DNA from: Perkinsus marinus ATCC 50983 | Lineage: Eukaryota > Perkinsozoa > Perkinsida > Perkinsidae | Assembly: GCF_000006405.1 (NCBI RefSeq) | Contig: NW_003215522.1 | Location: forward strand, 50,880 to 114,879 | Reading direction: 5' to 3' | Length of the DNA: 64,000 nucleotides | Shown here: piece after piece, positions 45,039 to 50,433 of the stretch | How positions within the stretch are numbered: the first letter of the stretch is position 1 | Layout: every line of letters starts with the position of its first letter | Made by a program: the position numbers and the translations under genes | The notes under the pieces: model-generated | Databases searched by the model: none | Told to the model about the DNA's origin: nothing | The model's input: only the letters and a program-made list of their open reading frames with translations

Positions 45039-45950
45039 TTAATGGGCAATCTTTGCCTGAGTGGTAGCAATGAAGTTGCTGACCACACGGATGGAGTACT
45101 CGTTGTACTTGGCGAGTTGTCTTTTAGTAGAGGTAATCTGATCACCCTCCAACCTGTTAACCAAGGTCACACATACGCAAGCAGCGGGGATCTTGGCACG
45201 CTGGCAGAAGCCCATGAGGGCGACACTCTCCATCTCGATGTTGCGGACACCAGCATCATGTAGGCGATGGAGGAAGTTAATCTTATCCTCCTCAGTATAC
45301 CAGGGGGTAAGAGCACCATCAGTTCGTCCCTGACCCTCGAAGAAATCATCAGCAGCCATGGTCTTGCCCTTCACAACAGGAATATCCTCAGGGGCGCTGG
45401 CGATGATATCATCGACAAACTGCATATCGAGAACATCGGTAGGGATCTCGAAGACCTTACCGAGCTGCACAGTCCTCCAGCAGGGTTTGATCTCGTCGTT
45501 GATGGCCTGAGTGGTGCATACAACGGTTCCGGGAGCAACACCACAGCCACCAGAAGTACCAAGACGGATCCACCTGACGGTATCGATGATACCAACACGA
45601 TTACAGAGCTTGGCAACTTCGTTCATGAGGATATGAAGAGAGGGACCACCCATACCGTGAGATACGGAGATCACAGACCCACACTTGAACATGCTGTAAC
45701 GCTCGGTCTTACCAAGACGCATAACAGTAGGCTTTGGGAGACCCTGCTCCACAAAGGCGTTGGCCATGACCTCAGCGAAGGTCTCAGCACGGGCAGGAGA
45801 GCCCATCATGACGAAGTACTTGACATCACCGAAAAGGGCCTGGAGGTCCATATCGGTATCGAGGCCGAGATGATAGTAATGGTCACAAGACAACGCTTGG
45901 GCATAGGGGGAGATGTTGTGTCTGGAGGCAGGGGTGGAAGTGGTCGACAT
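45039..45950 (-). CDS. Uridine phosphorylase (paralogue 1)
   Basis: Intronless, 303 residues, start MSTTSTPASRHN. It belongs to the nucleoside phosphorylase I family, nearest the eukaryotic UPP1/UPP2 type. Key motifs: YHLGLDTDMDL, KYFVMMGSPARAETFAE (phosphate-site Arg region), VSVSHGMGGPS-type loop (ISVSHGMGGPSLHIL), WIRLGTSGGCGV, GKTMAADDFFEGQGR and NIEMESVALMGFC with the ribose-binding Glu-Met-Glu. The enzyme splits uridine and phosphate into uracil and ribose-1-phosphate for pyrimidine salvage, probably in the cytosol. It lies head-to-tail with a close paralogue about 490 bp upstream. Both lack introns, so duplication probably followed intron loss or retroposition. Confidence 0.9.
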   Translation of the reverse strand: MSTTSTPASRHNISPYAQALSCDHYYHLGLDTDMDLQALFGDVKYFVMMGSPARAETFAEVMANAFVEQGLPKPTVMRLGKTERYSMFKCGSVISVSHGMGGPSLHILMNEVAKLCNRVGIIDTVRWIRLGTSGGCGVAPGTVVCTTQAINDEIKPCWRTVQLGKVFEIPTDVLDMQFVDDIIASAPEDIPVVKGKTMAADDFFEGQGRTDGALTPWYTEEDKINFLHRLHDAGVRNIEMESVALMGFCQRAKIPAACVCVTLVNRLEGDQITSTKRQLAKYNEYSIRVVSNFIATTQAKIAH

Positions 45951-46439: not shown

Positions 46440-47399
46440 TTAACATCCGGACTTTTTGAGTTCACTTGCGATGAAGTTGGTCACGACATCAGTCGAGTGC
46501 TCATTGAAGCGAGCAAGTTCACGTTTGGTGGCTGTAATCTGATCACCCTTTAGACGATCAACGATGGTGACACAGACACATGCTCCCGTGATATTAGCAC
46601 GATTACAGAAGCCCATCATGGCAACACTTTCCATCTCAATGTTGCGAACACCAGCGTCGTACAAGCGCTTCATGAAGGCCATCTTGTCATCCTCGTTGTA
46701 CCAGGTCTCGAGTGCCCCATCGAGACGGCCTTGTCCTTCGTAGAAATCATTAGCTGCCATAGTCTTCCCTTTAACAGCATTGATGTTGTCGGGCACAGAT
46801 TCCAATATAGCGTCCACGAACTTCATATCCACACAATCGGTGGGGATCTTGACGACTTTGCCAAGCTGGACACACCTCCAGTATGGTTCCACCTCATCAT
46901 TCATGGCTTGGGTTGTTACCACCACAGTGCCAGGAGGTACTCCGCATCCACCAGAAGTACCCATACGGATCCACTTCACGGAGTCTACGATACCCGCGCG
47001 GTCACAAAGCTTAGCAAGTTCATTGAGGAGGATGTGGATTGAGGGACCACCCATCCCGTGGGAGACGGAGACAACAGGTCCAACCTTATACATGCTGTAG
47101 CGCTCTGTCTTACCTAGACGTTCAACTACAGGTTTGGGCATTCCTTTAGAGACTAATGCATTCCCCATAGCTTCGGCGAAGTACTCGGCTCTCTGGGCTG
47201 ACCCCATGAGTACAAAGAATTTAACATTACCGAAGGTAGCATGTAGATCCATGTCTGTGTCCAAGCCGAGATGATAGAAGACGTCTGTTTTTAGTCCTCT
47301 AGAGTAAGCGGCCATTCTACTGGAAGTAGATGAGTCGAGAGACATCGGCGTCTCCCCGGCTTGAGTGCCAGTTTTGTCCACACGAGGTTCTCCAGACAT
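46440..47399 (-). CDS. Uridine phosphorylase (paralogue 2)
   Basis: Intronless, 319 residues from the ATG of MSGEPRVDKTGTQAGE. It shares all motifs of paralogue 1: YHLGLDTDMDLHATFG, KFFVLMGSAQRAEYFAE, VSVSHGMGGPSIHIL, WIRMGTSGGCGV, GKTMAANDFYEGQGR and NIEMESVAMMGFC. The main differences are a ~16-residue longer, Ser/Thr-rich N-terminus and a different C-terminal end (ASELKKSGC). The frame stays open to 47483 with an Arg-rich hydrophobic stretch (FRRLFSIRNWLRTFPAQLL) but only from a GTG, so a targeting exon upstream is possible. Pyrimidine salvage is the expected role. Paralogues may differ in location or in uridine versus deoxyuridine preference (inference). Confidence 0.9.
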   Translation of the reverse strand: MSGEPRVDKTGTQAGETPMSLDSSTSSRMAAYSRGLKTDVFYHLGLDTDMDLHATFGNVKFFVLMGSAQRAEYFAEAMGNALVSKGMPKPVVERLGKTERYSMYKVGPVVSVSHGMGGPSIHILLNELAKLCDRAGIVDSVKWIRMGTSGGCGVPPGTVVVTTQAMNDEVEPYWRCVQLGKVVKIPTDCVDMKFVDAILESVPDNINAVKGKTMAANDFYEGQGRLDGALETWYNEDDKMAFMKRLYDAGVRNIEMESVAMMGFCNRANITGACVCVTIVDRLKGDQITATKRELARFNEHSTDVVTNFIASELKKSGC

Positions 47400-47699
47400 T
47401 GAAGTGATGGTCTGGAAAAGAAGCTGAGCAGGGAAAGTACGCAACCAGTTGCGAATTGAGAAAAGTCTCCGGAACACGAGCACTGGTCAAGTGTATTCAG
47501 CTCGAAAGCTCGTCGTTTCGCGATCGGGTCAAATGTAACACCTGACACCATGAGCAACTATCGAATGGAAGAGAACCAGGCACTATACACATACAGGATG
47601 ATCGGGAATAAAAGGTCCACCCCTCGAAGTTTCTTAACACATGTGAATATCTTCCAAACTCAGATACCATCTCGGAGATCTTGATTAGCTCTCTCCAAT

Positions 47700-48685
47700 G
47701 GCGGTTTAATCGAATTCAGACTCTTTATACTCGACAAGTTATGACGATATGTAGAGAGCCGTGAATAGAAAGAAGTGCTGGCAGATTCCAATTCTGCACT
47801 GTATGGCTCAACTTTCTGCAGCATTCGCAAAGAGATGGCATAGCCGCCCCAATCAGGTTTACCATTCCATGGCCAAATGATGAAATATCGGTGCATATCA
47901 CAAAGTGGGAATCACGATGGCATAGCCGCCCCAATCAGGTTTACCATTCCATGGCCAAATGATGAAATATCGGTGCATATCACAGAGTGGGAAGCACGAT
48001 GGCATAGCCGCCCCAATCAGGTTTACCGTTCCAAAGCCAAATGATGAAATATCGGAGCATATCACAAAGTGGGAAGCATGATGGCATAGCCGCCCCAATC
48101 AGGTTTACCATTCCATGGCCAAATGATGAAATATCGGTGCATATCACAAAGTGGGAAGCATGATGGCATAGCCGCCCCAATCAGGTTTACCATTCCATGG
48201 CCAAATGATGAAATATCGGTGCATATCGCAAAGTGGGAATCACGATGGCATAGCCGCCCCAATCAGGTTTACCATTCCATGGGCAAATGATGAAATATCG
48301 GAGCATATCACAAAGTGGGAATCACGATGGCATAGCCGCCCCAATCAGGTTTACCATTCCATGGGCAAATGATGAAATATCGGAGCATATCACAAAGTGG
48401 GAAGCACGATGGCATAGCCGCCCCAATCAGGTTTACCGTTCCATGGCCACATGACGAAATATCGGTGCATATCACAAAGTGGGAAGCACGATGGCATAGC
48501 CGCCCCAATCAGGTTTACCGTTCCATGGCCACATGACGAAATATCGGTGCATATCGCTAAGTTGGACCATGGATAGACGGAAACACTGCAGAAATGGAAT
48601 CTGCCGGCACTTCTCCCTATACCCAGCTTTCTATATATCGTCATAGCTTGTCGAGTATGAAGAGTTTGGAATTGATTCAACTACC
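47700..48685. mobile_element. Foldback-type element: inverted repeats around an 82-bp satellite
   Basis: Left arm (about 47700-47825) and right arm (about 48565-48685) are inverted copies. Both contain ATACTCGACAAG (right arm on the reverse strand, with one change), ATGACGATAT and GGCAGATTCCA. Between them lie about nine tandem copies of an 82-bp unit. There is no coding capacity: the unit is not a multiple of three and frames close within each ~66 codons. Structure resembles foldback or Helitron-independent TIR elements with internal tandem arrays. No clear target-site duplication was seen. Confidence 0.8.
47834..48562. repeat. 82-bp tandem repeat array, ~8.9 copies
   Basis: Unit starts GATGGCATAGCCGCCCCAAT and ends CACAAAGTGGGAA(T/G)CAC. 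Starts recur every 82 bp (47834, 47916, 47998, 48080, 48162, 48244, 48326, 48408, 48490). Copies differ only at a few positions (CCATGG/CCAAAG; GGTGC/GGAGC; GCCAA/GGCAA), so homogenisation is recent. Confidence 0.95.
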
Positions 48686-49029
48686 ACTCGTCGAGATTTT
48701 CAAAACGGTACTTGAGTTCGTCTGATATTGCCCTGTGCTAGGAAATTGCGAAGGGTGGGCGCTTTTTTCGATCATCCTGTCGGAGTTTTAAGTGGGCCAG
48801 GATAAGACCTCATGCGGCGGATGATGTTGAGAACATAGCTGCATTGTGACCCTAGATAAGGTATGTGCCATTCAGTGGCCTCTGAGTTAGTAACATAACG
48901 TTCATGATCAGCTCGACAATAAAAGATGACCCAAACCCTCTATTGTGCATCTACTATAGAGACCTATTAGGCATCAGACGCGAGATGACTGGTGTCCCAA
49001 ACGCGACACCAGTCTTTACATGGCACGAG
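48686..49029. other. Spacer between the foldback element and the transporter gene
   Basis: No gene or repeat seen. Confidence 0.5.
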
Positions 49030-50433
49030 TTATTCAACTCCCACAGAGCGTTCTCCACTGGTTCGAAGTGCCGTGCGGACTACGTGAGAAACCGGTAACA
49101 GGCCCATCGTAAACACCAAGCCACAGAGCCAAAATTGACTGCGACAGCTCACACCCACTGCTGGAGTATCGAGGGCCCATCCAAGTGCCGCACCCAGTGA
49201 CTGAGCAGCCTTATAGAAGCCCGTATACTTCGCAGAGACATTGGCATTACCTGAAGCAAGGACACCTAGTAACCAGTAGCAATATGCTTGTAGTATGGAC
49301 TCTAGGAAACCATAGGCGACCAAGAGTGATATGATACTCAGTGAGCCTCCAGGGTTCGATATGACATCCAGTGCTGCACCACGACGGATGAAGCGCAACG
49401 AAAACTCCTCCACGATCGCTCCATAGGAGTAGACGCAAATACCACCAATGATGAGTCCCAAGAGAGCTAGCTTAGCTCTGGCCCGCACGCATAAATCGGT
49501 TCGATCTAGAAACCTGCCAACGACCACCGCGCCGAGCATCTGTGATACCCAATATGAAGCTGAGTTAAAGCCGCGGGAGCGAGCGGTGAACGACGAGGCG
49601 TTCACACAATTAAAGACGTATGGATAATAGAAGTTCGTGCCCAAGAATAAGGGCATCAGGAGAACCATAGCGCCTTCCTTCACCACTGTTACTGTGTCTC
49701 GTAATTCCTTCCCCACCGGCTTGGCAGGGTACACTGTGACGGGTACGCCGTCAGAGCGCATGACTCTATCTGGGGGAGCAATCATGAACCATCCAATGGC
49801 CGAACCAGAGACCATAACACAGACGAAAACAAGATAGGTCCAACCGTTGGAGGCAGTAGCCTCTTCTCCATCGTAGTTGATTATGAATTGCAGTAGGCCG
49901 CCGAGGAAACCCCCCAGGTTGAAGATAAGCCAGAACTCCCCTATGAATCGACCCCGCTCCTCTGGCGCGGCATACGCTACCATCACAGCCCCCTGTGCAG
50001 TCCACAGAGAGGCCGCGCCGATCCCAAGCAATGCCCCCGCCAAGACGAAAACGCAGTAGCTCTCCAGTGTATCTTTCTCCCTGGCGACGTACGCTGCAGC
50101 TGCGTACAGACAATACGTCGCGGAGCCCGCCACTATAAGCTTCCGTACACCCAGCATGTTGAAGAGAGACCCTCCGAAGAAGCCCGCCACGGCAAAGCAC
50201 AGATAGAGAGCCACATTAGCAGCATCAGCAGCAACGGTTGACTTCATCCCGGCTCCACCGAGACCTATAGGCATAAAGACCTCAGGGTACTATAGCCTGG
50301 GTGACTCACCCTGTAGAGCATTGAAGAAGCCCGGACAAGCAAAGCAGATAACCGATATTACTCGACACTGTTGGCGAGCATTCACCCACTCCTTGCTGCC
50401 GAGGGGAACGGCAACCATAGCAGCCGCTGGCAT
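49030..50433 (-). CDS. UNC93-like major-facilitator membrane protein
   Basis: Two exons (50433-50310, 50264-49030) with a 45-nt intron give 452 residues starting MPAAAMVAVPLG. The first helix motif CFACPGFFNALQGLGGAGM is the UNC93/DUF895 hallmark. Around eleven hydrophobic helices follow, including VALYLCFAVAGFFGGSLF, LLGIGAASLWTAQGAVMVAY, the charged turn EERGRFIGEFW, ASYWVSQMLGAVVVG and LGLIIGGICVYSYG. UNC93-type proteins are MFS relatives that act as transporters, K+-channel regulators or chaperones of other membrane proteins. The substrate is unknown. The end is polar and likely cytosolic (RTSGERSVGVE). The longer frame upstream begins with TTG, hence the ATG at 50433. Confidence 0.85.

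What the first reader, a model, noticed from the sequence alone, without database searches (positions are those of the whole stretch)
47700..48685. Foldback element with a homogenised 82-bp satellite as its core
The tandem array is not free-standing. Its two flanks are inverted copies of each other over about 120 bp (shared ATACTCGACAAG, ATGACGATAT and GGCAGATTCCA blocks), so the whole ~986-bp unit can fold back. Nine nearly identical 82-bp units sit inside while the arms have diverged by roughly a fifth. This suggests ongoing unequal exchange or replication within an older element. It lies between a metabolic gene and a transporter. I know of no description of this exact arrangement in this lineage.
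Basis: seen in the sequence. Interest (0 to 1): 0.8.

Follow-up and report, generated by a model that had tools for sequence, protein, structure and literature searches.

The report
Small jumping DNA with satellite core
In an oyster parasite, a small non-coding jumping DNA element carries a row of nearly identical 82-letter repeats in its middle, and because the same element sits at many places with different repeat numbers it shows how repeat DNA can arise and stay uniform inside a mobile element.

Summary
The window carries an insertion at 47594-48779 (1,186 bp): left arm about 240 bp, nine 82-bp units, right arm about 213 bp, terminal CAGGATGATCG inverted repeats, TA outside the left end. 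The host is Perkinsus, almost certainly P. marinus ATCC 50983. The same 82-bp array with at least one arm was found on 9 other contigs, with 3 to 13 units; relatives with one unit exist. A paralogous locus lacks the element and reads continuously across the site, so this is an insertion, not a local inversion. Units are homogenised locus by locus; a duplicated or allelic locus pair carries 13 versus about 5 units. "Foldback" fits the shape, not the FB/Tetris family, whose repeats lie in the arms. Closest known kind: Tc1/mariner-type MITE with internal satellite (Xenopus miDNA4). No matching transposase was found. New point: the window's left arm is mainly right-type sequence, an arm-exchange mosaic.

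The parts
47592..47593 (.). TA outside the left end (target dinucleotide); the matching right-hand pair 48780-48781 reads TC
   Evidence: one TA at the paralogous site C154 in a gapped alignment
47594..47833 (+). left arm, terminal CAGGATGATCG; about 47624-47801 is mainly right-type sequence (mosaic)
47834..48566 (+). array of nine 82-bp units starting at 47834, 47916, 47998, 48080, 48162, 48244, 48326, 48408, 48490
48567..48779 (-). right arm, inverted copy of the left arm, ending CGATCATCCTG
46440..47399 (-). neighbouring uridine phosphorylase gene (not part of the element); predicted start about 193 bp from the left end of the element
49030..50274 (-). neighbouring MFS/UNC-93-like transporter gene (not part of the element)

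Best explanation
A non-autonomous, non-coding DNA transposon family (a MITE) of Perkinsus, moved in trans into TA targets by a transposase of Tc1/mariner type. Shown: repeated termini, TA at most ends, dispersal over many contigs, a paralogous site without the element, no ORF of 100 aa or more inside. Inferred: the transposase and its type. The ancestral element had one 82-bp core between unequal inverted arms (inferred from single-unit copies). The core became tandem once (inferred from the same period and register in 10 of 10 arrays), and the array-bearing form was copied to new sites (inferred). At each site slippage, unequal exchange or conversion changes the unit number and keeps units alike (locus-specific likeness and one locus pair of unequal length are shown; which process acts is not). 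Long inverted arms let a strand fold back (predicted by folding). This, or recombination between copies, put right-arm sequence into the left arm of the window copy (mosaic shown, mechanism inferred). No host function is indicated.
For: Unit search: 53 matches on 11 contigs. TRF at 10 of the 11 sites: period 82 in 10 of 10, 3.0 to 12.9 copies. Self-BLAST arms on both sides of the array in 6 of 10; at least one arm at 10 of 10. Of 35 ends examined, 29 matched the terminus with at most 6 of 20 mismatches, and 21 of these 29 have TA outside (window background 4.8%); in 8 copies with both ends read, no 8-10 bp duplication, and TA on both sides in 4, two of which are one shared insertion. Terminal pattern 40 matches versus 11 for the reversed control. 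Empty site: C154 aligns at 77% over 624 columns across the insertion point. Nearest neighbour in the same locus for 63.4 of 77 units, permuted mean 8.0, maximum 16.0 of 500; divergence 5.2% within and 12.9% between loci. C244 and C233 share flanks (89% left, 97% right) and the insertion, with 13 versus about 5 units. Single-unit copy with TA at both ends on C40. DNA folds pair the arms (z -5.2 for the single-unit copy).
Against: No transposase with these termini was found: of 24 DDE_3 matches the surroundings of 11 were read (mostly 1.5 kb each side), 9 show inverted repeats with other termini and 2 show none; the other 13 were only seen not to coincide with arm or terminus matches. PF03184 gave nothing, but nothing rang in its control either. 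8 of the 29 scored ends lack TA, the window's right end among them. Four of 10 array loci have lost or truncated arms, and the most uniform array (C40) has no right arm. Untrimmed, edge units exceed inner ones in 8 of 8 arrays of 6 or more units, but this is inflated by arm-side bases: trimmed, it is clear in 5 (C249, C321, C244, C298, C137), slight in the window array and absent in C40 and C217. No two copies other than the C244/C233 pair are close to identical, so recent movement is not shown. C244/C233 could be alleles.
Confidence: 0.82

Rival explanations
1. Local inversion or inverted duplication of host DNA around a minisatellite.
For: At the window alone an inverted repeat around an array would look the same.
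Against: Same array and arm on 9 other contigs; paralogous site without it, continuous across the insertion point.
Confidence: 0.02
2. Foldback (FB/Tetris/Galileo) element, Mutator- or P-like.
For: Long inverted arms fold on each other, tandem repeats present.
Against: In Tetris the tandem repeats lie inside the inverted arms and TSDs are 8-10 bp (PMC4079207); here the array is central and no 8-10 bp duplication is seen in 8 of 8 copies with both ends read.
Confidence: 0.04
3. Helentron/HINE or Pearl-type element with central repeats, as in bivalves.
For: Central satellite-like repeats between two modules (PMC7492417 passages).
Against: HINEs have subterminal inverted repeats and a 3' palindrome; here the inverted repeats reach the very ends, which are mostly flanked by TA.
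Confidence: 0.03
4. Arrays were amplified during transposition (aberrant replication or gap repair), not by later exchange in place.
For: Each locus has its own variants, as expected if amplified at insertion; the edge-unit sign of later exchange is weak or absent in 3 of 8 arrays. Odds raised from 0.2 for that reason.
Against: The pair C244/C233 shares one insertion and unit variants but has 13 and about 5 units; edges are clearly diverged in 5 of 8 arrays.
Confidence: 0.25
5. The array is kept by selection, as transposase-binding repeats or as a regulatory element near the uridine phosphorylase start.
For: The element lies about 193 bp upstream of the predicted start.
Against: Single-unit and half-deleted copies exist; no Rfam match in the window at gathering scores. 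No expression data were available.
Confidence: 0.08

Closest known systems
miDNA4, Tc1/mariner MITE of Xenopus tropicalis (Scalvenzi and Pollet; original not seen, read in PMC12628747 under its heading 4, part 1 of 2, and in passages of PMC9659126)
   Same: Non-autonomous, TIRs, satellite monomer inside as one copy or as an array of varying number
   Different: Unrelated host lineage; no sequence comparison made; Tc1/mariner membership not proven here; no free satellite arrays found here
Tetris foldback transposon of Drosophila virilis (PMC4079207, abstract and part 1 of 2 of results and of discussion)
   Same: Long inverted arms, non-autonomous, tandem repeats that vary in number, autonomous partner not found
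   Different: Tetris repeats (about 220 bp) lie inside the TIRs, TSD 8-10 bp, also long satellite-like arrays
Pearl / Cg_HINE non-autonomous Helentrons of bivalves (PMC7492417, passages)
   Same: Short central satellite-like arrays between flanking modules, dispersed in the genome
   Different: Helentron superfamily, subterminal inverted repeats and 3' palindrome; here terminal inverted repeats and TA
Merlin families with internal tandem repeats in Symbiodinium (PMC8101967, passages)
   Same: DNA transposons of alveolates with internal tandem repeats
   Different: Transposase-coding Merlin families of another superfamily, not MITEs with a central array

Membership tests
MITE | No coding capacity | tested here: met
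   No ORF of 100 aa or more (ATG/GTG/TTG starts) listed between 47483 and 49030
MITE | Terminal inverted repeats, dispersed multicopy | tested here: met
MITE | Insertion shown by a site without the element | tested here: met
   Paralogous site C154, 77% over 624 columns; gaps lie just right of the junction, so the exact duplication is not read there
Tc1/mariner superfamily | TA target | tested here: met
   21 of 29 scored ends (35 examined, 6 dropped) have TA, background 4.8%; TA on both sides in 4 of 8 copies with both ends read. TA as duplication rather than part of the terminus rests on the gapped C154 alignment
Tc1/mariner superfamily | Autonomous DDE partner with the same termini | tested here: inconclusive
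   24 DDE_3 matches, surroundings of 11 read, none with these termini
FB/Tetris foldback | Tandem repeats inside the inverted arms | tested here: not met
   TRF and repeat search on the window show one central direct array and none in the arms
FB/Tetris foldback | 8-10 bp target duplication | tested here: not met
   0 of 8 copies with both ends read; at most 5 of 10 positions agree
Helentron/HINE (Pearl) | Subterminal rather than terminal inverted repeats, 3' palindrome | tested here: not met
   Inverted repeats are terminal; 3' palindrome not searched for
Satellite DNA | Long free-standing arrays outside the element | tested here: inconclusive
   10 of 10 arrays found keep at least one arm, but the genome search gives lower bounds and skips very common words

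The most novel reading that the evidence does not exclude
The family is a set of parallel satellite nurseries in one unicellular genome. The element core tandemises more than once (82-bp form at 10 sites, separate 41-bp and 179/220-bp forms at C12). Each insertion then runs its own concerted evolution. Fold-back pairing or exchange between copies repeatedly rewrites one arm with the other (window copy, C12, the C40 single-unit copy, C324), so that the birth of a satellite and of a symmetric foldback can be followed side by side.
Probability: 0.35. Interest if true: 0.6.

Novelty: new member of a known kind. Interest (0 to 1): 0.45.

Why it matters
How satellites arise from transposons is argued mostly from animals and plants in the papers seen here. 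One small alveolate genome holds single-unit, few-unit and 13-unit forms of one element at separate sites, a paralogous site without it, and one locus pair with two array lengths. The order tandemise, spread, homogenise can therefore be tested with strain data. It also sets the taxonomic frame: the window comes from an oyster parasite, and no description of such repeats in it was met in the searches made.

Tried and rejected
Local inversion: rejected by co-occurrence elsewhere and the site without the element. Fungal host with RIP: assumed at first from gene content, noted so in the notebook, dropped when the neighbouring proteins matched Perkinsus; RIP indices (the script stopped with an error part way) are not used. 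CACTA ends just outside the left arm: considered on reading, dropped because other copies end at TA-CAGG. Hypermutation of the arms: C244 and C233 arms differ by 10.5 and 13.7%, left-flank windows by 1.0 to 19.3%, right-flank windows (partly coding) by 0 to 5%; no claim made. Autonomous partner by terminal pattern at C237 and C301: no transposase-like frame seen and no long inverted ends in the 1.8 kb read. ATGG..ATAG microhomology as cause of the 82-bp junction (written as such in the notebook): on reading, the junction does not fit it exactly; left open, not tested. C323 was first counted as an array site: the contig ends about one unit after the arm and shows part of the unit inverted there, so it is not counted as an array. 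Introner-like origin (Amoebophrya, PMC7789003 passages): not tested; this copy lies between genes. The plasmid collection gave no match. No other Perkinsus genome DNA was searched.

Full report
What is there. The window lies on contig C91 of a 54.5-Mb, 347-contig genome. Tandem Repeats Finder gives an 82-bp array of 8.9 copies at 47834-48566. The flanks are inverted copies of each other: 104 nt at 82%, extending to 210 columns at 73%, with 12-nt perfect ends at 47593-47604 and 48769-48780. Single-base shuffles of one arm never approach the observed alignment score (147 against at most 29 in 1,000). The element proper is 47594-48779. A DNA fold of the whole element pairs the two arms over most of their length (no shuffle control at that length). 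The single-unit copy on C40 folds with z -5.2 against 100 shuffles.

Host. The neighbouring transporter (49030-50274, minus) is closest to Perkinsus olseni and P. chesapeaki proteins (75% and 67%). The listed P. marinus transporter is only 42% identical, presumably a paralog. The neighbouring uridine phosphorylase matches seven Perkinsus proteins at 67 to 90%. P0022, named as P. marinus ATCC 50983, sits on a contig of 371,774 bases, the length of C154 here, and is identical to C154 over the 89 of its 291 residues that the fetched stretch covers. The genome is therefore almost certainly that of P. marinus ATCC 50983. The element sits between two genes on the minus strand, about 193 bp from the predicted start of the phosphorylase.

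It is a family. Two units used as a probe give 53 matches on 11 contigs (lower bounds by the tool's note). At 10 of these sites TRF gives period 82 in 10 of 10, with 3.0 to 12.9 copies. At the eleventh, C323, the contig ends about one unit after the arm and shows part of the unit inverted, so no array can be claimed. Self-BLAST finds arms on both sides of the array at 6 of 10; with arm probes, 10 of 10 keep at least one arm (C40 lacks the right arm, C137 the left, C321 and C298 keep pieces). Arm probes also find nine loci with about one unit-like match, partial in several (eight with one probe match, L047 with two overlapping). One of these, on C40 (L059), has both ends with TA on each side. 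C12 carries another tandem form, with 41-bp and 179/220-bp repeats that include the terminus.

Ends and insertion. The terminus reads TA-CAGG(G/A)TGATCGARAAAA. A genome pattern search with 2 mismatches gives 40 matches against 11 for the reversed pattern. I examined 35 ends; 6 were dropped because the terminus was not found within 6 mismatches of 20, and 21 of the other 29 have TA outside it (TA background in the window 4.8%). The window's right end has TC instead. The C233 right end was dropped by the script but does carry TA. In the 8 copies with both ends read, none has an 8-10 bp duplication and 4 have TA on both sides; two of these four, C244 and C233, are one shared insertion. Joining the host flanks of the window copy and searching the genome finds C154, a paralogous phosphorylase locus. 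It aligns at 77% over 624 columns across the insertion point, with one TA there and no element. The alignment has gaps just right of the junction, so the exact duplication is not read from it. This rules out a local inversion.

Concerted evolution. The 77 scored units (one broken unit left out) fall into locus-specific groups: nearest neighbours are in the same locus for 63.4 of 77, ties shared (permuted mean 8.0, maximum 16.0 in 500). Mean divergence is 5.2% within and 12.9% between loci. The seven inner units of C40 are identical. Edge units are on average more diverged than inner ones in 8 of 8 arrays with 6 or more units, but part of this comes from edge units running into the arm or foreign DNA. 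With the ends of the units trimmed it is clear in 5 of 8 (C249, C321, C244, C298, C137), slight in the window array, and absent in C40 and C217. C244 and C233 carry the same insertion in homologous flanking DNA (89% left, 97% right), either a duplication or alleles. One has 13 units; the other has about 5, broken by foreign DNA. They share unit variants (two in all three intact C233 units, a third in one of them), so the array was there before they parted and changed length afterwards. The shared period and register of 10 of 10 arrays point to one founding tandem duplication; that is an inference, not a test.

Arms. Left arms and right arms form separate groups across loci. Mean identity is 75% left-left, 76% right-right and 64% left-right (tree). 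The two arms therefore differed before the family spread. The window copy was in neither reference set. At 30 columns that separate left from right types, its left arm has 22 right-type and 6 left-type letters, one other and one gap. Five of the six left-type letters lie in the first three or last seven columns. C12 and the C40 single-unit copy, also outside the sets, carry mostly right-type letters on their left side (25 of 28 and 8 of 10 typed letters), and the right arm of C324 is mixed (13 left, 9 right). Sequence has thus moved between arms. The window's left arm is 74% identical to its own right arm, 70% on average to the other right arms (up to 75%) and 63% on average to left arms (though 72% to that of C249). 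Self-conversion and exchange between copies cannot be told apart.

Mechanism. Best supported: a non-autonomous element moved by a Tc1/mariner-type enzyme, with a core that became tandem and then evolves by slippage, unequal exchange or conversion at each site. The enzyme is not shown. PF13358 (DDE_3) gives 24 matches in the genome. I read the surroundings of 11: 9 show inverted repeats with other termini, several of them long and perfect, and 2 show none. None of the other 13 coincides with an arm or terminus match. Fold-back is possible on paper, but the most uniform array, C40, has only one arm, so folding is not required for homogenisation.

Known kinds. The nearest is miDNA4 of Xenopus, a Tc1/mariner MITE with a satellite monomer inside as single copy or array; I saw it only through reviews (PMC12628747 heading 4, part 1 of 2; PMC9659126 passages). 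Tetris (PMC4079207, part 1 of 2 of results and of discussion) has its repeats inside the inverted arms and 8-10 bp duplications. Pearl and HINE elements of bivalves (PMC7492417 passages) are Helentrons. Merlin transposons with internal tandem repeats are reported in Symbiodinium, and in P. marinus two Merlin-related ORFs and remnants whose ends were not identified (PMC8101967 passages). Dada transposons are known in P. marinus (PMC3706591 passages). Searches with Perkinsus plus transposable elements (15 of 37 listed), miniature inverted-repeat (1 of 1), mariner (8 of 8), tandem repeats and transposon (11 of 11) or satellite DNA (3 of 3), and a wider protist search (10 of 10), showed no title or abstract opening that describes such an element in Perkinsus. 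The library holds only open-licence papers, and Repbase was not searchable.

Verdict. A real family of a known kind, not met in print in the searches named. The strongest points are the co-occurrence on 9 other contigs, the paralogous site without the element and the locus-by-locus likeness of units. The weakest are the missing transposase and the uneven edge signal.

Noticed in passing
L051 (C40:877206 region) and L052 (C129:277192 region): DDE_3 (Tc1/mariner-like) matches with open frames of 354 and 290 aa between 441-443-bp inverted repeats (100% and 98%) that contain 51-bp tandem repeats: tandem repeats in the arms of possibly autonomous elements in the same genome.
   Followed up: partly
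L070 668-2257 (C251): Tc1-like element with a 360-aa frame and 198-bp 100% identical inverted repeats, hence probably recent.
   Followed up: partly
L060 1669-2442 (C12): Rearranged relative with 41-bp and 179/220-bp tandem repeats and three successive copies of the right terminus.
   Followed up: partly
L014 3504-3826 (C321): A 20-bp repeat (about 16 copies) begins about 20 bp beyond the truncated left arm of an array-bearing copy.
   Followed up: no
L048 3989-5928 (C52 contig end): 115-bp array of about 17 copies running to the contig end, about 550 bp from a one-unit relative; possibly subtelomeric.
   Followed up: no
L071 and L072 (C237, C301): Two stretches both containing TACAGGGTGTCCGAGAAAA and sharing the same inverted-repeat pattern and similar frames: another repeat family whose start resembles the terminus studied here.
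   Followed up: partly
window 45039-45950 and 46440-47483, minus: Two phosphorylase-superfamily genes next to each other, with a further paralog at C154: a small gene family.
   Followed up: no
L019 2828-2914 (C323 contig end): Part of the 82-bp unit forms a near palindrome just before the contig ends.
   Followed up: no
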